From Erysipelotrichaceae bacterium (GTDB lineage Bacteria > Bacillota_I > Bacilli_A > Erysipelotrichales > Erysipelotrichaceae): a stretch of 64,000 bases of DNA. The position numbers and the translations under genes are program-made. The stretch lies in NCBI GenBank assembly GCA_017405785.1, contig JAFQZR010000001.1, positions 62,001 through 126,000 of the forward strand. The letters are read 5' to 3'. This document shows positions 941 through 43,328 of this stretch, in pieces (position 1 is the first letter of the stretch; each line of letters opens with the position of its first letter). Below the pieces are notes generated by a model that made no database searches, was not told the DNA's origin, and saw nothing but the letters and a program-made list of their open reading frames with translations.

Positions 941-2623
941 CTATTCATCAACACTGTACACCACTGCCTGATAAGGTTTCAGTTCAACGGTCTGTTCATT
1001 CTGTTTCAAGTTATCGTAGTTGTTGATGAGTACTTTGCTTCTGATCCATTCAGGAAGCTGATAACTGACAGTCTTCTTACTGAAATTACCGACCACAAAC
1101 AGCTTATGGCCGTTGTATTCACGGCTGTAGGCGATGATCTTTTTATTCTCATGATCATATTCCCGGGTCCTGCCGTAAATGGCTGTTTCATCATTACTCT
1201 TGATGGCCAGCAGTTTCTGATAATAGCGGTAGACGGATTTCTCAGCCTTCAGATCCTTTTCGATGTTGATCTCCTTATAGTTCGGGTTAATGCACTGCCA
1301 TGTCCGGTGACCTTCATTAAAACCGCCATTCACGGACCCATTCCAGGCAAGAGGAACACGGGCATGGTCTCTGGCACCGTACCTGATGAAACTGAAAGCC
1401 AGTTTTTCTGGTACTCCGTATTTTCTGAGCAGGTCATAGACAAAGTGAGAAACCGGGTCCTTCAGCTGATCAATGTTCCGGAAATCACAGTTGACCAGTC
1501 CGGCTTCCTGGCCCATGTATATGAAAGGAATGCCGAAACCCATGTAGGTAATTGTTGCCAGCATCGTTGCTGCTTCGTAACGGTAATGCTTTGTATCAAT
1601 GCTGAAACGGCTGACACTGCGTACATTGTCATGGTTTTCCAGAACCAGGGTATTCCAGCCGTCCTGATAATATGTTACCTGTGGGTCAAGAAGTCCTTTT
1701 TTGAACTGACGCAGATCAAACGGCTTCCAGAAGAATTTCTTGCCGGCAATGTTATCGGAGTCAAGATGAGCGAAATTAAAGATGGTATCAAGTTCATGGT
1801 TTGACCTTTTTACATATTCATGAGCAGCTTCTTGTGACGGGTGGTATGATTCACCTACCGTATAGCTGTCATAGTGCGAAAGTGAATTGGTATAGAGTTC
1901 CTGCAGGAATTCATGCATGCGCGGTCCGTCAACATAATACTGGGCACCTTTCTGATAGGTGTATTTATCATTGTCGTCCTGGATCGGATAAACTTTGGAG
2001 AACATGTTGAAGACATCAAAGCGGAAACCGTCAACACCCTTATCCAGCCAGAAGTTCAGAATATCTTCGATCTCCTTTCTGACCTGCGGGTTTTCCCAGT
2101 TAAGGTCAGCCTGTTCAACACAGAAAAGATGCAGGTAGAATTCATCACTGTCCCCTATCCTTTCCCAGGCACTGCCGGTAAAGGTTGAAGCCCAGTTGGA
2201 AGGCGGTAACAGCTTGCCGTTTTTACGGATTCCCTTTCTGATGATGTAATAGTCACGGTATGGTGAATCAGGCGATTCGATGGCCCGCTTGAACCACGGA
2301 TGTTCAATGGAAGTATGGTTGATGACCATGTCCATGATCACTCTCAGTCCTCTGTTGTGACATTCTTTAAGCAGGCGGTCAAAGTCCTCCATGGTACCGA
2401 ACTTTTCATCAATGGCTCTGTAGTCACTGATATCATAACCGTAATCATAATCCGGAGACTTATACAGCGGTGAAAACCAGATGGCATTCACTCCCAGATC
2501 CCTGATGTAATCAAGTTTGGATATGATTCCCTCGATGTCTCCCCAGCCGTTGTTTGTGGTATCAAGGAAACTGAAAGGATATATCTGATACACAATCGCT
2601 TTTTCAAACCAGTTTGTCTTCAT
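941..2623 (-). CDS. GH13 oligo-1,6-glucosidase-type alpha-glucosidase
   Basis: A 560-residue cytoplasmic alpha-glucosidase of glycoside hydrolase family 13 (MalL/DexB/TreC group), of full family length. Visible catalytic elements are the nucleophile Asp203 in DGFRFDVFNMF, the acid/base Glu258 in TVGESY, and His331-Asp332 in LENHDNVR, plus conserved region I (DMVINHTS). The residue after the nucleophile is Val204. In this subfamily Val at that place is associated with alpha-1,6 linkages (isomaltose, dextran fragments), while Ala or Thr favours alpha-1,4, so an oligo-1,6-glucosidase is the best guess. The start is set at the third codon (2623): AAGGTG lies seven bases before that ATG but directly abuts the ATG at 2629. 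There is no PTS or ABC sugar transporter next to it. Confidence 0.9.
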   Translation of the reverse strand: MKTNWFEKAIVYQIYPFSFLDTTNNGWGDIEGIISKLDYIRDLGVNAIWFSPLYKSPDYDYGYDISDYRAIDEKFGTMEDFDRLLKECHNRGLRVIMDMVINHTSIEHPWFKRAIESPDSPYRDYYIIRKGIRKNGKLLPPSNWASTFTGSAWERIGDSDEFYLHLFCVEQADLNWENPQVRKEIEDILNFWLDKGVDGFRFDVFNMFSKVYPIQDDNDKYTYQKGAQYYVDGPRMHEFLQELYTNSLSHYDSYTVGESYHPSQEAAHEYVKRSNHELDTIFNFAHLDSDNIAGKKFFWKPFDLRQFKKGLLDPQVTYYQDGWNTLVLENHDNVRSVSRFSIDTKHYRYEAATMLATITYMGFGIPFIYMGQEAGLVNCDFRNIDQLKDPVSHFVYDLLRKYGVPEKLAFSFIRYGARDHARVPLAWNGSVNGGFNEGHRTWQCINPNYKEINIEKDLKAEKSVYRYYQKLLAIKSNDETAIYGRTREYDHENKKIIAYSREYNGHKLFVVGNFSKKTVSYQLPEWIRSKVLINNYDNLKQNEQTVELKPYQAVVYSVDE

Positions 2624-2704
2624 TATCATTCACCTTCTTATACATACATTATACCTTCATAACAGTGTTAGGTGTTATAATTGAATAAAGGACGGTATAA
2701 TCAT

Positions 2705-4183
2705 ATGATCAGTAACGATGCTGAGATACTCAAGCTGAAAAATAAAATCAAAATGGAAGTCTGCAAGCTGGCCTGGGCTGACAATCTCAATCAGGATGCG
2801 GTAGAGCAGATGATTCTGGACCTGTTTCCGGGTCCTAAGGCTACCTGGCGCTGCTGTGTCTACAAAGAAAGAGAAATAGTCAGGCAGCGTGTCAGACTGG
2901 CCATGTGTGAAAACGTAACTACCAATCCAAACAGCCAGAACATCGTTCAGGTCATTGAACCTGCCTGTGATGAGTGTCCTATCGCTACCTACATGGTCAC
3001 TGACATGTGCCGTTTCTGTCTGGGCAAAGCCTGTCTTAATGCCTGCAAGTTTGATGCCCTGACACCGGGCGACAGCCATATGAAGATCGATCCGGCCAAA
3101 TGCCGTGAATGCGGAATGTGTGCCAATGTCTGTCCTTACGGAGCCATCATTCATATTGAAAGACCGTGCAAGAAAGCCTGCCCTGTTGATGCCATCACCT
3201 ACGATGAATACGGCATTGCTCAAATAGATGAAGAGAAATGTGTCAACTGCGGTCACTGCATCCATAACTGCCCGTTCGGGGCCATCGGTTCCAAAGTCTT
3301 CTTAGTAAAGATCATTGATGCTATCAAGTCCGGCAAACAGGTTATTGCCATGGTTGCCCCTAGCATTGAAGGTCAGTTTGGTGAAAAGATCGATCTGGCC
3401 AGCATCAAGCGGACTTTACAGAAGATCGGCTTCTCTGACATGGTTGAAGTAGGATTGGGTGCTGACATGACAGCGGTCTCTGAATCTCTTGAGTGGATCG
3501 AAGCACTGGAAGAAGGAAAGAAACTGACTACTTCCTGCTGCCCTGCTTTCACAGAGATGTTAAGAAAGAACTTCCCGGAGATTTACGAAAATAATAAATC
3601 AAAGACTGTATCACCGATGTGTGCCACGGCCCGTTATCTGAAAGTACTGTATCCGGATTGTGTAACGGTCTTTATCGGCCCATGTGTTGCCAAGAAAAAG
3701 GAAGCTCTGGATGAATCCATTGAGGATAATGCTGACTTTGTCATGACATATGGCGAGCTGCAGATCCTGATGGAATCACTTGATCTCGACTTCATTGAAG
3801 CTGATGAACATGACCAGCAGTCCAGTATCTTCGGTAAGGGTTTCGCCTCCAGCGGCGGTGTCGCCAATGCTGTTCTGGAAGTCATGAAGGAACGCGGTGA
3901 AAACGTTGATGATGTCAAACTGTTGAGATGTTCCGGCGGCAGTGAATGCCGTAAGGGTGTTCTGTTGCTGAAACATGGAAAACTGACTGAAGACTTCATT
4001 GAAGGCATGTTCTGTCCGGGCGGATGTGTCGGCGGTCCTTCCAAGAGAAAGACCGAGACCGAGATCACCAGAGCCAGAAAGAAACAGCTGAACAAGGCTG
4101 ATGACCGCGGCATTCTGGAAAATCTCGCAACCGTTCCAATGGATCAGTTCTCAATGTCGGTAGATTATCACAAGGAAAAATAA
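2705..4183 (+). CDS. monomeric [FeFe] hydrogenase, probably group B-like
   Basis: A 492-residue iron hydrogenase. Numbered from the ATG at 2705, the H-cluster loops are TSCCPAF (Cys278, Cys279), GPCVAKKKEA (Cys327) and EGMFCPGGCVGGP (Cys437, Cys441), which supply the four ligands of the active site. The N-terminal part has many cysteines: CDECP and CRFCLGKACLNAC near 88-114, then two CxxCxxCxxxCP ferredoxin motifs at 133-143 and 179-189 with a CxxxCP between them, enough for three to four [4Fe-4S] clusters. The usual Met-Pro-Cys and TSCCPxW are replaced by Gly-Pro-Cys and TSCCPxF, as I recall for group B enzymes rather than the standard H2-evolving group A. The upstream TTG at 2681 is in frame, but AAAGGA at 2688-2693 better serves the ATG. 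Maturases HydE/F/G are not in the window. Confidence 0.9.
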   Translation: MISNDAEILKLKNKIKMEVCKLAWADNLNQDAVEQMILDLFPGPKATWRCCVYKEREIVRQRVRLAMCENVTTNPNSQNIVQVIEPACDECPIATYMVTDMCRFCLGKACLNACKFDALTPGDSHMKIDPAKCRECGMCANVCPYGAIIHIERPCKKACPVDAITYDEYGIAQIDEEKCVNCGHCIHNCPFGAIGSKVFLVKIIDAIKSGKQVIAMVAPSIEGQFGEKIDLASIKRTLQKIGFSDMVEVGLGADMTAVSESLEWIEALEEGKKLTTSCCPAFTEMLRKNFPEIYENNKSKTVSPMCATARYLKVLYPDCVTVFIGPCVAKKKEALDESIEDNADFVMTYGELQILMESLDLDFIEADEHDQQSSIFGKGFASSGGVANAVLEVMKERGENVDDVKLLRCSGGSECRKGVLLLKHGKLTEDFIEGMFCPGGCVGGPSKRKTETEITRARKKQLNKADDRGILENLATVPMDQFSMSVDYHKEK

Positions 4184-4190
4184 ACATATA

Positions 4191-4228
4191 AAAACTCCCG
4201 GTTCTTACGAATCGGGAGTCTTTTTTTA
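4191..4228. terminator. bidirectional intrinsic terminator, hydrogenase / rpoC
   Basis: ACTCCCG at 4194-4200 pairs with CGGGAGT at 4213-4219 and is followed by seven T on the plus strand. On the minus strand the run is TTTTTAT. It sits between two convergent genes and can end both. Confidence 0.9.
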
Positions 4229-4247
4229 TCTTGCTCTTTCTGAAGTC

Positions 4248-7200
4248 TTATTCTTCGTCTTCACCTTCGACATCAGCTTTTTCGGCTTCAACGGCTACCA
4301 GTGACTGCAGGCGAGCTTCTTCTTCGCTCTCCTGAGCCAGTCTTTCAGCCTTCACCTTGCGGGCTTCTTCAGCTCTGCGCTTGATTTCGATAGTTGATTC
4401 ACGAACTGCATCGGTACCGGTTCCTGCAGGAATCTTCTTACCGATGATAACATTTTCCTTCAGACCTCTTAAGACGTCAGTCTTGCCGTTAACAGCTGCG
4501 TCAGTCAGAACCTTGGTGGTTTCCTGGAAGCTGGCAGCTGATAACCATGAGTCGGTCTCAACAGATGACTTGGAGACACCTAACAGAATAGGCTTGAACT
4601 TGGCCGGGATTCCGCCTTCCAGCAGAATATCACCGTTGAGTTCAGTGATCTTTCTCTTGCTGATCTGTGTTCCCTTGGCCAGAGCGGTATCATTACCGTC
4701 TTCGATAACGACCTTTCTGAGCATCTGTGTGATCATGATCTCCAGGTGCTTGTCAGAGATATCGATACTCTGGCTGTGGTAAACCTTCTTGACTTCCTTC
4801 AGAATGTAGTTCTGAACGGCTTCGACACCGGCGAAGTCTATGAGTTCCTTAGGGTTGACCTGGCCTTCAGTCAGCTTTTCGCCAGCCTTGACGAATGTAC
4901 CGACCTTGATCCAGGAACGGATAACCTGAGTAGGATCGACCTTGTGGTCAAATGTTTCCTCTTCACCTTCGACAACTCTCTTCAGAGTGATTGTCGTACC
5001 GCCCTTTTCGTTAGGTTCGATTGAAACGATCTCACCGTCGAACTTGGCGATAACGGCTGGATGCTTAGGGCAGCGTGCCTCGAACAGTTCTTCAACACGC
5101 GGTAAACCCTGAGTGATGTCACCTTCAGCGTTGGCAACACCGCCGGTATGGAAGTTTCTCATTGTAAGCTGAGTGCCCGGTTCACCGATTGACTGAGCAG
5201 CCATGATACCGACTGCTTCACCGTTTTCAACCAGCTTGCCTGTGGCCATGTTACGTCCGTAGCACTTGCGGCAGATGCCGTTTTCTGACTTGCAGACGAA
5301 AGCGTTTCTGATCAGAACTTCCTTGATGCCGGCAGCGACGATTGCCTTGGCAGTATTTTCATCAATGAACTGATCCTCACCGATAATGAGTTCACCGGTG
5401 TTAGGATCGATGACATCCTGCTTGGAGTATCTGCCTACCAGTCTTTCGTACAGGCTTTCAATGACCGTACCGGCCTTGCGGTCGACGATCTCCGTTACAA
5501 GGTAGCCGTCCTCAGTCTGGCAGTCGTCTTCAACAACGACAACATCCTGAGCAACGTCAACCAGTCTTCTGGTCAGATAACCTGATGATGCAGTCTTTAA
5601 GGCTGTATCGGTCAGACCTTTTCTGATACCGTGAGACGCGATGAAGAATTCGTTAACGGTCTGTCCTTCACGGAAGCATGAATAGATAGGAACCTCAATG
5701 ATTGATCTCTGATATCCCTTGGCACTCTTGGCCTGAGTAGGTTTACTCATCAGACCACGTAAGCCGGCTAACTGGGACAGGTTGTCCTTGTTACCACGGG
5801 CACCGGAAACCATCATCATGTTGATAGGGTTCTTCTTTGGCAGTGAAGCCATCAGTTCATTAACTGTTGTTGTCTTGATGCCGTCCCATAAGGTCATTAA
5901 GCTTCTTTCCCATTCAGGTTCAGTCAGTAAGCCTCTGTGATAGAGTCTTAACAGTCTTTCAGCCTGAACCTTGCCCTCTTCCACATACTGATGCTTGTTA
6001 GGGGAAACCTTAATGTCATTCAGGGAGATGGTCATACCTGCTACGGTTGAATACTTGAATCCGTTATCCTTGATCTTGTCAAAGTAAACGAATGTCTGGT
6101 CTTCGCCATGATATGGCTTGCCGTCTTCGTGAGCCTGATGAGATTCGGTATTGGCGTATCTCTTATAGACTTCAGCGATGATAGCACCCAGATCCTTCTT
6201 CTTTACGGCGCTTGCCAGAGGCAGAGCCTTGATGTATTCTCTGATATCTGTTCCGTAATCAACGAAATACTTGTCGGCCAACTTGACGTTCCAGCCGTCT
6301 GTTACTTCATTGACATATGGGAAATCACCAGGGAAGACATTGTTGAAGATGATCTTGCCAACGGTAGTGATCAGGTACTGTTCATTCTGCTCAGGTGTGA
6401 AGAAAGACTTCTTCAAAGACTTGGCACGGATGGCGATACGGGTGTGCAGATGTGTCTGCTTTTCATCATAGGCCATTAATACTTCGGAAACATCCTTGTA
6501 TACACGGCCTTCTGAATCACCGTAAGTCTTCCATAATTCAGCGGAAGCCTCATCACCTAAGCTTCTGTATCTTTCGGCTTCTTCATAGAACTCTTCCTTG
6601 GTTTCTTCCATGGTCAGATAGAAGTTACCAAGCACCATGTCCTGTGAAGGTGTAACGATTGGCTGGCCGTCCTTAGGTGAAAGGATGTTGTTGGAACCAA
6701 GCATTAAGATCTTGGCTTCAGCACAGGCTTCTTCACTTAATGGTACGTGTACAGCCATCTGGTCACCGTCAAAGTCTGCATTGAATGCCGGGCAAACCAG
6801 CGGATGCAGTCTGATGGCACGGCCTTCAACCAGCTTAGGCATGAAGGCCTGGATACCCAGACGGTGCAGAGTCGGAGCTCTGTTTAACAGAACCGGGTGA
6901 TCCTTGATGACTTCCTCAAGGATATCCCATACTCTGTCATCACCCTTGTCGATGAGTTTTTCAGCAGTCTTGGAGTTGGTGGCGATTTCCTGGTGAACCA
7001 TTTCGTTGATGACGAAAGGTCTGAACAGGACGATGGCCATTTCTCTCGGCAGACCACACTGATACATCTTAAGATCCGGTCCGACAGCGATAACTGAACG
7101 GCCGGAGAAGTCAACACGCTTACCTAACAGATTCTGACGGAATCTGCCCTGCTTACCCTTTAAGCTGTGAGACAGGGACTTAAGCGCTCTGTTGTTTGAT

Positions 7201-13961: not shown

Positions 13962-14003
13962 AATGTCCTTCCTTTCTTCAGTATCATTGTCAATATACCA
14001 GAA

Positions 14004-14126
14004 ATGAAAACCCGTTTTATCATAGACAAAACGGGCGAAAAGTCTCCATAACTTACTTTTTCTACCTCGGTAACATTTTTACACCTTGCGGTCGTTACTG
14101 TCTATGGTATATTGTTACAATCTTTT
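14004..14126 (-). promoter_or_regulatory. L10 leader with transcription attenuator
   Basis: Between rplA and rplJ the minus strand carries an untranslated leader with the characteristic GGTGTAAAAATGTTACCGAG-type segment (about 14060-14085). It ends in an attenuator hairpin: CCCGTTTT and AAAACGGG (14028-14035 and 14011-14018) followed by TTTTCATTT. This arrangement fits the ribosomal L10 leader family of Firmicutes, in which the L10-(L12) complex binds a kink-turn region and favours the terminator. Exact 5' bounds are estimated. Confidence 0.8.
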
Positions 14127-15374: not shown

Positions 15375-16862
15375 CTATTTGGAATGGAATAATTTCTTGG
15401 TCTGATATTTCGGTTCACACGTCAGCATGATGCCGAGTTTTCTGAAGGTATTCTCGTCATTCTGAGACAGAATTACCGTGGAATGAGCCTGCGCACCCTT
15501 TAATAAAGGCAGGTTCTTGATGGCCTTATCGGCGAACGGATTCATCTGCGCGGAGATGGTAATAGCTACCAGAACTTCGTCAATATGCAGGCGCGGATTG
15601 TTATTGCCGAGGTACTGAGTCTTTAATTCCTGTACCGGGGCAATGATGTTCGGTGACAGTAACATAATGTCATCATCCAGATTGCAGATGGCCTTCATGG
15701 CATTGATCAAAGCTGCAGAAGCAGCACCTAACAGTGAGGAATTCTTGCCGGTAACGATGCGGCCGTCTTCCAGTTCAATGGCTACAGCTGGACCGTTGGT
15801 CTCCTGAGCCTTCTTCAGAGCCGGCTCAACGCATTTGCGCATGTATGGCGATAACCCGGCCTTGTTCATGATGACTTCCATCTTCTGGATCAGATTCTCC
15901 GGGGCATATCCCCTTCTGACGTCAACCAGTGTGTGATAGTATCTTCTGATGATTTCCTGATTGCTGGCTTCTCTGGCCACTTCATCATCCACGATGCACA
16001 TGCCGTTCATGTTGACGCCCATGTCAGTCGGTGAATGATAGATCTCTTCATTTGTGATCTGCTTGAGGATACGTGACAGTACCGGGAAGATCTCCACGTC
16101 ACGGTTATAGTTGACGGCGGTGATGCCGTAAGCCGCCAGATGGAACGGGTCGATCATGTTGATGTCATCCAGGTCAACCGTAGCTGCTTCATAAGCCAGG
16201 TTTACCGGATGGCTTAAAGGCAGATTGAAGATCGGGAATGTCTCATACTTGGCATAACCCGCATAAATGCCTCTTTTGTAATCGTGATACAGCTGAGACA
16301 GGCAGGTAGCCATCTTGCCGCTGCCCGGACCAGGAGCGGTTACAACTACTAACGGTCTGGTAGTTTCAACATAATCGTTACGGCCATAGCCTTCATCGGA
16401 AACTATCTTATCGACATTGGTCGGATAACCGTCAATCGCATAATGCAAATATACTTTTATGCCCATGTTTTCCAGCTGATGACGGAACGCATCAACCTGG
16501 GCATTGGAAACATACTGGGTAATGACAACGCTGCTGACATATAAGCCGATGCCGGTAAAGGCATCGATGAGTCTTAAGGCATCCTGGTTATAAGTAATGT
16601 CCAGGTCGCTTCTTCTCTTGCTTTTCTCAATGTCATGGGCATTGATGGAAACGATGATCTCCACCTTGTCTGCCAGCCGTGAAAGCATCTTTATCTTGAT
16701 GTCAGGCTGGAAACCCGGCAGTACTCTGGAGGCGTGATTGTCATCAAAGAGCTTGCCGCCGAATTCCAGATACAGCTTATTGTTGAATCTGGCAACTCTC
16801 TCCATGATCTTGGCTGACTGCAGCTTGATATACTTCTCATTATCGAACGCTACTTTTTTCAT
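15375..16862 (-). CDS. DUF1846 family protein
   Basis: A 495-residue protein of the DUF1846 family, recognised by its N-terminal VAFDNEKYIKLQSAKI, FGGKLFDDNHASRVLPGF and the phosphate-binding-like APGPGSGKMATCLSQLYHD. The family is common in Firmicutes and its structure has been likened to nucleotide-binding folds, but no function is established. The in-frame GTG at 16880 overlaps the Shine-Dalgarno GGAGGTG, so the ATG at 16862 is taken as the start. It follows the HAD phosphatase by 40 bases and may be the last gene of rlmA-lipoprotein-HAD-DUF1846. It stands in the block that separates nusG from rplK. Confidence 0.9.
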   Translation of the reverse strand: MKKVAFDNEKYIKLQSAKIMERVARFNNKLYLEFGGKLFDDNHASRVLPGFQPDIKIKMLSRLADKVEIIVSINAHDIEKSKRRSDLDITYNQDALRLIDAFTGIGLYVSSVVITQYVSNAQVDAFRHQLENMGIKVYLHYAIDGYPTNVDKIVSDEGYGRNDYVETTRPLVVVTAPGPGSGKMATCLSQLYHDYKRGIYAGYAKYETFPIFNLPLSHPVNLAYEAATVDLDDINMIDPFHLAAYGITAVNYNRDVEIFPVLSRILKQITNEEIYHSPTDMGVNMNGMCIVDDEVAREASNQEIIRRYYHTLVDVRRGYAPENLIQKMEVIMNKAGLSPYMRKCVEPALKKAQETNGPAVAIELEDGRIVTGKNSSLLGAASAALINAMKAICNLDDDIMLLSPNIIAPVQELKTQYLGNNNPRLHIDEVLVAITISAQMNPFADKAIKNLPLLKGAQAHSTVILSQNDENTFRKLGIMLTCEPKYQTKKLFHSK

Positions 16863-41205: not shown

Positions 41206-41423
41206 TATTACCTCCCAATATTCGATAATATCTGTCATATACATTATACAAGATACTGTCAATAAAAACACACAATAAAATAAAAACATACCGGAAAGAA
41301 CTTGTGATAACAATTAATGTATACACAAAGCAACGCTGTGCTATAATTGTATTACACCATTAAGACAAATAATCATTACTACCGCAAAAACAATGGGGTC
41401 AGTGTACCCAGAAGGAGGCAACA

Positions 41424-41954
41424 ATGGGAATATTTGATAAATTACTGAAAGAAGGACTGGACGCCGTAAAAGAAGCTGTCAGCGACGAAAACAAGGAAAA
41501 AGCCAAGGAACTCTTCAGCAATCTTAAGGAACAGTTTTCTGATGAAATAAAGGAAATCAAGGAGAAGGTTGAAGAGTATAAGGCTGAACAGGCCAACAAG
41601 GAAGAATCAATTCCGCAGGATAACTATGAAGAGCCTGAGGATGGAAAGACCTGCCGTGAAAGAATTCTGGAATGCATCGAGAATGAATTCCCGCAGTATC
41701 ATGTTGCAGAAAATGTTTCACCTAGAGAATTAGGCGGACAGGGACGCTTCATGGATTATTCAATGCTGATACTTGATGAAGACAACAAAATCCAGCTGAT
41801 AATCATGCTGATCGGCAAAACCACTACTGCTCACAGAGAATACCGCTGGAGCCGTGAATTCGCTGAAGAAAAAGGTGTTAAGTTCATCAACTTCATCAAC
41901 CACTATCCAAACAGACCTGAATACATTTCAGCAAGACTGCATAAATACCTGTAG
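41424..41954 (+). CDS. conserved hypothetical protein, 176 residues, upstream of the RT element
   Basis: The N-terminal third is a charged amphipathic helix (KLLKEGLDAVKEAVSDENKE, EIKEIKEKVEEYKAEQ). The C-terminal two thirds form a compact domain with FMDYSMLILDEDNKI, LIIMLIGKTTTAHREYRWSR and FINFINHYPNRPEYISARL. Small proteins ending in this N-[HY]-x-P-N-x-x-x-Y-I-x-x-R-L pattern recur in Firmicutes, but no function is known to me. The fold order (strand-strand-helix-strand) could be a degenerate nuclease-like core, without the usual D-ExK residues. A TATAAT at 41342-41347 and GGAGG before the ATG support expression. The structured RNA and RT gene follow in the same direction. Confidence 0.7.
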   Translation: MGIFDKLLKEGLDAVKEAVSDENKEKAKELFSNLKEQFSDEIKEIKEKVEEYKAEQANKEESIPQDNYEEPEDGKTCRERILECIENEFPQYHVAENVSPRELGGQGRFMDYSMLILDEDNKIQLIIMLIGKTTTAHREYRWSREFAEEKGVKFINFINHYPNRPEYISARLHKYL

Positions 41955-41967
41955 TCTTAACATAAGC

Positions 41968-42095
41968 AGAAAGAGAAAAGCAGCAATGCGCCTGTGGCGG
42001 GTGCAGCATGATCTTTATCGTGGCTTTACAGGCAGTCCGATCATGTACCACCTGGTAACGTAAGCACAGCTTACTTCAAAGCATTTTCTCTTTCT
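41968..42095 (+). ncRNA. compact structured RNA candidate preceding the reverse transcriptase
   Basis: The 151-base gap before the RT gene is bounded by a long-range stem: AGAAAGAGAAAA (41968-41979) pairs perfectly with TTTTCTCTTTCT (42084-42095), extended by GC/GC with one bulged A. Inside lie CATGATC/GATCATG (42007-42013 with 42039-42045, 25-base loop), GTAAG/CTTAC (42060-42064 with 42070-42074) and CGCC/GGCG (41989-41992 with 41996-41999). GCCTGT (41990-41995) can instead pair with ACAGGC (42028-42033) in the loop of the second stem, a possible pseudoknot. The outer 3' arm ends ten bases before the RT start codon. I infer a functional RNA partner of the RT; it is not proven. Confidence 0.6.
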
Positions 42096-42105
42096 CTTTT
42101 TATCT

Positions 42106-43320
42106 ATGAGTTTACTTGAGCAATTAAGTCAGAAGGAAACCTGGAAGGATTTCCGCATTTATAAGGCTGAAAGAAATCAGCTTTCAAAAAGAGAGCTTAA
42201 AGAGCTGGATGTTTTTATTGAGGAGCAAAAGTATCTGAGTGTTACCGATACTTTTTCTTTTGGTTATCCAACAAAAAAAACCATCTCAAAGATGGGTTCG
42301 GAAAAGAAAAGAACCGTATACAGCTATTCTGACGATGAAACATGGGTTCTTAAAGTGCTCTCATGGCTGCTTTACAGGTATGACTGTAAGATACCTGAAA
42401 GCTGTTATTCCTTCCGCCCGCACAAAACCTCCAAAACAGCTTTTGACAGCATCAGAAAAATACCTGAACTGGACAGCTGTTTCGTGCTGAAAGCTGACAT
42501 TCATGACTATTTCAATTCCATCAATGTAGATAAGCTTTTGATAATACTTCATCAGGTCATTAATGATGATGAACCTCTTTATCAGTTCATCGAAGGATTG
42601 CTCACTCAGGACAGATGCTATTACAATTATGAACTGATTACGGAAAAAAGAGGCGCCATGGCCGGTGTCCCTTTAGCCAGTTTTCTGGCTAACATCTATC
42701 TGATGGACATGGATCTGCTTTTCGAGCAGGAAAACATCCCCTATTACCGTTACTCAGATGACATCATTATCTTCTGTAAGGATGAAGAGCAGTTAAAACA
42801 CGCCGATACTCTTCTGAAGGAAACCTTGAAAGAAAAGTGTCTGAAACTGAACATGAAGAAATACCATGTCAGTGAACCTCATCAGTCCTGGGAGTTTCTG
42901 GGTTTCAGCTATCACGAAGGTCAGATAGACCTGTCTGACGGTACCATTGAAAAGATGAAAGGCAAGATCCGCCGTAAGGCTCACAGCATTTACCGCTGGG
43001 AAAAAAGGAATAATGCCGATTATTCCCGCGCTGCCCGTTCCATGATACGCAGCTTTGACTACAAGTTCTATGATCTTTCCGGCAATAACGGCTTCACCTG
43101 GACTAGATTCTATTTTCCAGTAATAACCGTTTCTGACGGTCTGCACAAAATCGATCAGACAATGGTTCAGTATCTGCGTTATCTGAAAACCGGACGTCAT
43201 TATAAGGGTAATTATGAAATATCCTATGATTATCTGAAAAAGCTGGGCTATACTTCACTGGTAAACGAATACTATACATGGAAAAAGGAAAACGAAGAGC
43301 TGAAAAAAAGTGGTTTGTAA
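42106..43320 (+). CDS. free-standing reverse transcriptase of unassigned class
   Basis: A 404-residue RNA-directed DNA polymerase. Visible RT motifs in order: CYSFRPHKTSKTAF at 100-113, the first catalytic Asp131 in LKADIHDYFNSIN, motif 4 GAMAGVPLASFLANIYL at 183-199, the catalytic YSDD at 216-219, and FLGFSYHEG at 264-272 followed by a basic thumb. There is no maturase (X) or HNH domain, so it is not a normal group II intron protein. Retron hallmarks (NAxxH, VTG) are absent, and the DGR motif 4 (xxxSQ) is replaced by PLASF. It may belong to the unknown-group/defence-associated RTs. No Shine-Dalgarno precedes the ATG; the upstream bases are the pyrimidine arm of the RNA stem. Confidence 0.88.
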   Translation: MSLLEQLSQKETWKDFRIYKAERNQLSKRELKELDVFIEEQKYLSVTDTFSFGYPTKKTISKMGSEKKRTVYSYSDDETWVLKVLSWLLYRYDCKIPESCYSFRPHKTSKTAFDSIRKIPELDSCFVLKADIHDYFNSINVDKLLIILHQVINDDEPLYQFIEGLLTQDRCYYNYELITEKRGAMAGVPLASFLANIYLMDMDLLFEQENIPYYRYSDDIIIFCKDEEQLKHADTLLKETLKEKCLKLNMKKYHVSEPHQSWEFLGFSYHEGQIDLSDGTIEKMKGKIRRKAHSIYRWEKRNNADYSRAARSMIRSFDYKFYDLSGNNGFTWTRFYFPVITVSDGLHKIDQTMVQYLRYLKTGRHYKGNYEISYDYLKKLGYTSLVNEYYTWKKENEELKKSGL

Positions 43321-43328
43321 CCACTTTT
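43304..43328. terminator. terminator shared by RT and DUF4349 genes
   Basis: AAGTGGTT and AACCACTT close a three-base loop. On the minus strand TTTTTTT follows. It overlaps both stop codons, so the two convergent genes end inside it. Confidence 0.8.

What the first reader, a model, noticed from the sequence alone, without database searches (positions are those of the whole stretch)
41955..42105. Structured RNA with closing stem and possible pseudoknot directly upstream of the RT
A 12-bp perfect long-range stem (41968-41979 with 42084-42095) encloses about 100 bases that contain three local stems and a six-base loop-to-upstream complement (41990-41995 with 42028-42033). The stem's 3' arm replaces the ribosome site of the RT gene. 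RT systems such as retrons and DRT2/DRT9 use an adjacent ncRNA as template or primer, so this may be the RT's own RNA.
Basis: partly seen in the sequence, partly recalled or inferred. Interest (0 to 1): 0.75.

Follow-up and report, generated by a model that had tools for sequence, protein, structure and literature searches.

The report
RT-5 RNA beside a UG26 reverse transcriptase
The structure is real: it is the known but unstudied RT-5 RNA, a knotted ~130-base RNA that travels with one family of probably anti-viral bacterial reverse transcriptases (UG26) and is most likely the RNA that enzyme binds and copies.

Summary
The spacer matches Rfam RT-5 (RF03026) at 83.4 bits (cut-off 45.7). The RT is PADLOC RT_UG26 (507.7 bits). 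In 195 genomes of the family, the same 20 carry both; nearly always the RNA lies directly 5' of the RT gene. On 39 non-redundant homologues (Erysipelotrichaceae, Lachnospiraceae, Bacteroidales) the fold is upheld by compensatory change: 129 double-change events on the RT tree against 13-18 for slid controls. The RT gene lacks a Shine-Dalgarno in 37 of 39 loci, whereas the partner gene upstream has one in 39 of 39. That partner (PADLOC RTasCOG2852) has a PD-(D/E)XK-like fold without the usual catalytic residues. So this is a three-part module (partner, RT-5 RNA, UG26 RT) in the DRT style. RNA binding, templating and phage defence are inferred, not shown. The DRT10-type template-repeat pattern is absent from the variable loop and only weakly supported in the conserved UUCAAAG segment. 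It is a new member of a known RNA family; tying RT-5 to UG26 plus partner is the useful addition.

The parts
41320..41347 (+). promoter-like site (TATACA-16-TATAAT, extended -10) upstream of the partner gene
   Evidence: 10 of 12 matches, but such sites are expected by chance in the region (mean 4.9), so weak
41424..41954 (+). partner gene, 176 aa: N-terminal helices (3-60) and C-terminal PD-(D/E)XK-like domain; Shine-Dalgarno AGAAGGAGG at 41410-41418
   Evidence: PADLOC RTasCOG2852 full length, 28 of 35 homologues match; fold: 3r3p Z 9.0, VRR_NUC 8.1; conserved upstream of the RNA in most loci
41968..42095 (+). RT-5 ncRNA with its closing stem P1 (Rfam RF03026 model covers 41986-42088)
41968..41979 (+). 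P1 closing stem, 5' arm (pairs with 42084-42095)
41980..41989 (+). P2 small hairpin GCA-GCAA-UGC
41990..41995 (+). pseudoknot strand 1 (pairs with 42028-42033)
   Evidence: 99.1% of cells paired; 18 double-change events, 2 broken
41998..42054 (+). P3 (41998-42003/42049-42054)
42006..42046 (+). P4 (42006-42013/42039-42046)
   Evidence: 49 double-change events
42014..42021 (+). hypervariable internal loop (6-13 nt in homologues)
42022..42037 (+). P5 (42022-25/42034-37); its loop holds pseudoknot strand 2 (42028-42033)
42060..42074 (+). P6 hairpin
42075..42083 (+). J6/1, conserved single strand UUCAAAGCA directly 3' of P6; preferred template candidate (inference)
42084..42095 (+). P1 closing stem, 3' arm, followed by a U-rich tail (42096-42105) and the RT start
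42106..43320 (+). UG26 reverse transcriptase, 404 aa, YSDD active site
   Evidence: RT_UG26 507.7 bits; RVT_1; AlphaFold pLDDT 94
43306..43328 (+). intrinsic-terminator-like hairpin at the end of the RT gene

Best explanation
41968-42095 is the cognate non-coding RNA (RT-5, extended by a closing stem) of the UG26 reverse transcriptase encoded right after it. Shown: a conserved, covarying, pseudoknotted RNA that co-occurs with this RT family and a PD-(D/E)XK-like partner gene. Inferred: the three form one operon-like module. The RT binds the RNA as a scaffold; the pseudoknot holds P4/P5 and presents a single-stranded segment to the active site. The enzyme makes cDNA, probably repetitive and protein-primed as in DRT9 and DRT10, in response to phage, with the partner protein needed for the outcome. 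The preferred template is the conserved segment 42075-42083 between hairpin P6 and the 3' arm of the closing stem. The stem plus U-rich tract probably marks the RNA's 3' end and keeps RT translation low.
For: RF03026 at 83.4 bits. RT_UG26 at 507.7 bits. The same 20 of 195 genomes carry both. The RNA model finds the RNA upstream of the RT across families and phyla. Of 44 pairs, 36 show double changes, against 20.6 in shuffles; 92% of cells are paired, against 38-47% in slid controls. There are 129 double-change events on the tree against 13-18 for slid versions. The partner is conserved at the same place. The RT fold is close to DRT9 (9vma, Z 23.0) and DRT2 (9c0i, Z 21.0) as well as group II RTs. 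DRT9, DRT10 and DRT3a RTs are published to copy a cis-encoded ncRNA (PMC12483538, PMC12632851, PMC13174585); DRT10 has a 137-nt ncRNA, a partner gene and an RT. Related species hold a different gene at this site, so the module is accessory.
Against: No expression, binding or cDNA data. The A-B-A' repeat that marks DRT10 templates is not enriched in the variable loop and only weakly supported at 42075-42088 (41 of 41 loci with a repeat of 3 nt or more; permutation p = 0.01 on one of several statistics, repeats of 4 nt or more not enriched). One UG26 RT (G172) has no adjacent RNA, and one divergent RT (G179) has it two genes upstream. The window's own neighbours are mostly housekeeping genes, not a defence island.
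Confidence: 0.68

Rival explanations
1. The RNA is only a cis-acting leader: it controls translation or transcription of the RT gene, for example by RT feedback, and is not copied.
For: It sits in the 5' leader with the closing stem about 10 nt before the start codon. The following gene lacks a Shine-Dalgarno in 37 of 39 loci, and in G179 the SpoU-like gene that follows the RNA shows none in the sequence either. A U-rich tract follows the stem.
Against: Distance to the RT start varies (about 5 to 90 nt), and in G179 two genes lie between RNA and RT. Single-stranded parts far from the start codon are as conserved as the stems. Relatives among the RTs (DRT2, DRT9, DRT10) use such RNAs as templates.
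Confidence: 0.15
2. The RNA is a structural cofactor only; the RT makes untemplated DNA, as Class 1 DRTs do.
For: No template repeat is clearly recognisable.
Against: Best profile matches after UG26 include UG17 (DRT10), DRT9, Drt3a and Drt2, which are ncRNA-templated, and the fold matches DRT9 and DRT2.
Confidence: 0.11
3. It is a retron: the closing stem is a1/a2 and the RT makes msDNA from the enclosed RNA.
For: A long closing stem encloses the RNA directly 5' of an RT gene, as in retrons.
Against: No NAxxH motif in any of 39 RTs, VTG in only 3. Retron NCBIfam models score far below cut-off (59.8 against 235). The RT is full-length UG26.
Confidence: 0.04
4. It is a remnant or variant of a group II intron with its maturase.
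For: The RT resembles group II RTs by sequence and fold (TIGR04416 117.5 bits; 7k9y Z 29.3).
Against: TIGR04416 is below its cut-off of 300. The Rfam scan finds RT-5 and no group II intron RNA in the window. The RNA is 128 nt with an unrelated fold.
Confidence: 0.02

Closest known systems
RT-5 RNA motif (Rfam RF03026)
   Same: Scores far over the gathering cut-off along the full 104-position model
   Different: The Rfam model lacks most of the 12-bp closing stem and cannot hold the pseudoknot; no function is given in the Rfam description seen here
UG26 reverse transcriptases with RTasCOG2852 (PADLOC DRT models)
   Same: Full-length profile match of RT and partner
   Different: The PADLOC models are of proteins only, not the RNA; no experimental study of UG26 was found in the papers searched
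DRT10 (UG17 + SLATT + ncRNA)
   Same: Three-part layout, ~130-nt structured RNA, single strand directly 3' of a stable hairpin
   Different: Partner is PD-(D/E)XK-like, not SLATT; RNA normally sits between partner and RT; no clear A-B-A' template
DRT9 (UG28 + ncRNA)
   Same: RT fold (Z 23.0), a structured ncRNA expected next to the RT, 3'-proximal single strand
   Different: No conserved poly-U template inside the RNA; the RT scores far lower on the Drt9 profile than on UG26
DRT2 (UG2 + ncRNA)
   Same: Pseudoknotted RNA next to the RT; RT fold Z 21.0
   Different: Below the Drt2 cut-off (68.2 against 390)

Membership tests
RT-5 RNA (RF03026) | score at or above the gathering cut-off | tested here: met
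   83.4 against 45.7 bits, full model
RT-5 RNA (RF03026) | adjacent to a reverse transcriptase gene | tested here: met
   the match ends 17 nt before the RT start; the same 20 of 195 genomes carry both
UG26 RT | full-length match to the RT_UG26 profile, best of all | tested here: met
   507.7 bits, residues 1-394 on 1-397 of 398; next best 119
UG26 RT | intact YxDD active site | tested here: met
   YSDD at 216-219; D131, D218 and D219 invariant in 38 sequences
DRT (defence-associated RT) with demonstrated anti-phage activity | RT-dependent protection against phage | not testable with these tools
   needs plaque assays
DRT10 | UG17 RT | tested here: not met
   UG17 profile 103.3 bits against 507.7 for UG26
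DRT10 | SLATT partner | tested here: not met
   Pfam matches of the window's partner up to E 0.1 include no SLATT; predicted C-terminal fold is PD-(D/E)XK-like
DRT10 | A-B-A' template repeat 3' of a stable hairpin | tested here: inconclusive
   variable loop: not enriched; 42075-42088: 41 of 41 loci have a repeat of 3 nt or more, permutation p = 0.01, repeats of 4 nt not enriched
DRT9 | universally conserved poly-U template in the RNA | tested here: not met
   no conserved unpaired U run of 4 inside the closing stem (alignment); a U-rich tract exists only 3' of the stem
DRT2 | NCBIfam Drt2 cut-off | tested here: not met
   68.2 against 390
Retron | retron RT motifs and family cut-off | tested here: not met
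   no NAxxH, VTG in 3 of 39; 59.8 against 235 bits
Group II intron | group II intron RNA beside the RT | tested here: not met
   Rfam scan of the window finds only RT-5 and an L10 leader
PD-(D/E)XK nuclease (partner protein) | conserved catalytic D...(D/E)xK | tested here: not met
   the D before strand 2 is D or N, and the (D/E)xK position reads M-L-I in the alignment (strands); position assigned by eye

The most novel reading that the evidence does not exclude
RT-5 is a telomerase- or DRT10-like template RNA: hairpin P6 bounds the template, the conserved UUCAAAGC segment is copied over and over with realignment on the UUC at the start of the closing stem's 3' arm (predicted unit in this window AATGCTTTGAA), and an inactive nuclease-fold partner acts as sensor or effector.
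Probability: 0.2. Interest if true: 0.78.

Novelty: new member of a known kind. Interest (0 to 1): 0.5.

Why it matters
RT-5 has been an Rfam motif for which I found no function in the papers held. Pairing it almost one-to-one with UG26 RTs and a conserved partner protein turns it into a defined three-part system whose parts, RNA boundaries and base pairs are ready for test, and it adds a further branch to compare with DRT9, DRT10 and telomerase on how a bound RNA directs DNA synthesis.

Tried and rejected
A-B-A' repeats in the variable loop 42014-42021: not enriched over shuffles. Plasmid and phage records: no RT relative at E 1e-20. Viral contigs: none with the single protein, three distant RTs (28-31% identity) with the alignment, not followed. 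Retron and group II intron readings: see rivals. Literature: no hit for RF03026, RT-5 RNA or an experimental UG26 study; UG26 is only named in a survey of cold-seep viruses. The papers that define the RT-5 motif and the UG classes are not in the library held, so whether RT-5 and UG26 were linked there is unknown. A sequence search of solved structures with the partner gave nothing convincing. No RT tree against other UG classes was made.

Full report
What is there. The spacer 41955-42105 lies between a 176-aa gene (41424-41954) and a 404-aa reverse transcriptase (42106-43320). The fold is more stable than shuffles (z = -4.3), and no shuffle of the region has a perfect stem of 12 bp.

Identity of the RNA. 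Rfam names it RT-5, RF03026: 83.4 bits against a cut-off of 45.7, over the full model. The Rfam model covers 41986-42088 and so leaves out most of the closing stem.

Identity of the proteins. The RT is PADLOC RT_UG26 (507.7 bits; the next profile has 119) with an intact YSDD site. Its predicted structure (pLDDT 94) resembles group II intron RTs most, then DGR RT, DRT9 and DRT2. The upstream protein matches PADLOC RTasCOG2852 over its full length, weakly for the window copy (E 6.7e-4) and up to 4e-9 for homologues; 28 of 35 homologues match. Its C-terminal domain has a PD-(D/E)XK-like fold (I-Bth0305I Z 9.0, VRR_NUC Z 8.1), but the usual catalytic residues are not kept, so it is probably not an active nuclease (inference). 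Its N-terminus is predicted to be helical, at lower confidence.

Association. In 195 genomes of the family, RT-5 occurs in 20 and RT_UG26 in 20, and they are the same 20. A fuller set has UG26 in 40 of 272 genomes. A new model (R1) built from 39 homologues finds the RNA upstream of the RT in nearly every locus that has the flank, including Bacteroidales and Lachnospiraceae loci. The sequences used to build R1 match it by construction; Rfam finds several of the divergent ones independently. Exceptions: G172 has no RNA next to its RT, and G179 has a divergent third RT whose RNA lies two genes upstream.

Covariation. On a MAFFT alignment not fitted to the structure, 92% of cells pair, against 38-47% when partners are slid. 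Double changes occur at 36 of 44 pairs, against 20.6 in shuffles. Counted as parsimony events on the RT tree, there are 129 double changes against 13-18 for slid controls; the pseudoknot has 18 with only 2 broken. The closing stem is misaligned in some outliers; a per-locus search shows a 9-18 bp stem (mean 12.8 against 8.1 in shuffles), and with the fitted model all its 12 pairs show double changes (biased towards the structure).

Layout and expression. The partner gene has a Shine-Dalgarno in 39 of 39 loci; the RT has none in 37 of 39. The segment between closing stem and RT start is U-rich (mean 70%, median length 9). This fits an RNA 3' end at the stem and weak or unusual translation of the RT (inference). 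A promoter-like site precedes the partner gene and a terminator-like hairpin follows the RT, so one operon is likely but unproven.

Accessory nature. In two related species the same neighbours (transketolase subunit and DUF4349-type gene) flank a different small gene in place of the module.

Mechanism. Published relatives in the UG group use a cis-encoded ncRNA as template: DRT9 (PMC12483538), DRT10 (PMC12632851), DRT3a (PMC13174585). DRT10 is closest in layout: 137-nt RNA, partner, RT. In DRT10 the template sits directly 3' of a stable hairpin and carries an A-B-A' repeat. In RT-5 the equivalent place is 42075-42083, UUCAAAGCA, single-stranded and nearly invariant. A repeat of 3 nt or more that ends in the closing stem's 3' arm region is found in 41 of 41 loci (shuffle mean 30.6; permutation p 0.01), but repeats of 4 nt are not enriched and several statistics were tried. 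The variable loop 42014-42021 shows no such pattern. I therefore commit to templating by the RNA as most likely and rate the exact template as a guess.

Novelty. The RNA family, the RT class and the partner profile are each catalogued. I found no paper that joins them or tests UG26, but the two founding papers were not readable here. The window is a new member of a known kind with useful added anatomy.

Noticed in passing
L104 (G179:C29), 2467-5551, - strand: A divergent UG26-type RT (29% identity, 274.7 bits) follows two SpoU-methylase-family genes, and an RT-5-like RNA with an 11-bp closing stem and an intact pseudoknot lies upstream of all three: a possible variant system. No second copy was found in 266 genomes of the family.
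   Followed up: partly
L095 (G172:C12), 16331-16463, - strand: A sub-threshold RT-5-like RNA (42 bits) lies beside IS605-type tnpA/tnpB genes, 12 kb from the genome's UG26 RT, which has no RNA next to it.
   Followed up: partly
L094 and L098 (genus g20): UG26 RT with RT-5-like RNA but no partner gene of the usual kind; in L094 a Schlafen-type helicase gene lies upstream instead.
   Followed up: no
window 13996-14125, - strand: Ribosomal protein L10 leader (RF00557, 71.4 bits), an ordinary cis-regulator.
   Followed up: no
L129 and L130 (G098, G170): At the module's site, related species carry a different short gene (predicted product begins MQYRFIGHD) between the same two neighbours.
   Followed up: partly
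L101, 3697-3876: Between RT-5 and the RT start this locus has an 11-bp GC-rich hairpin followed by TTTT, which looks like a terminator for the RNA (seen by eye; the scan does not list it).
   Followed up: partly
G179:C8:2237-3418: A UG26 RT copy whose open frame is reported with one TAA, possibly decayed; the same genome holds two other UG26 RTs.
   Followed up: no
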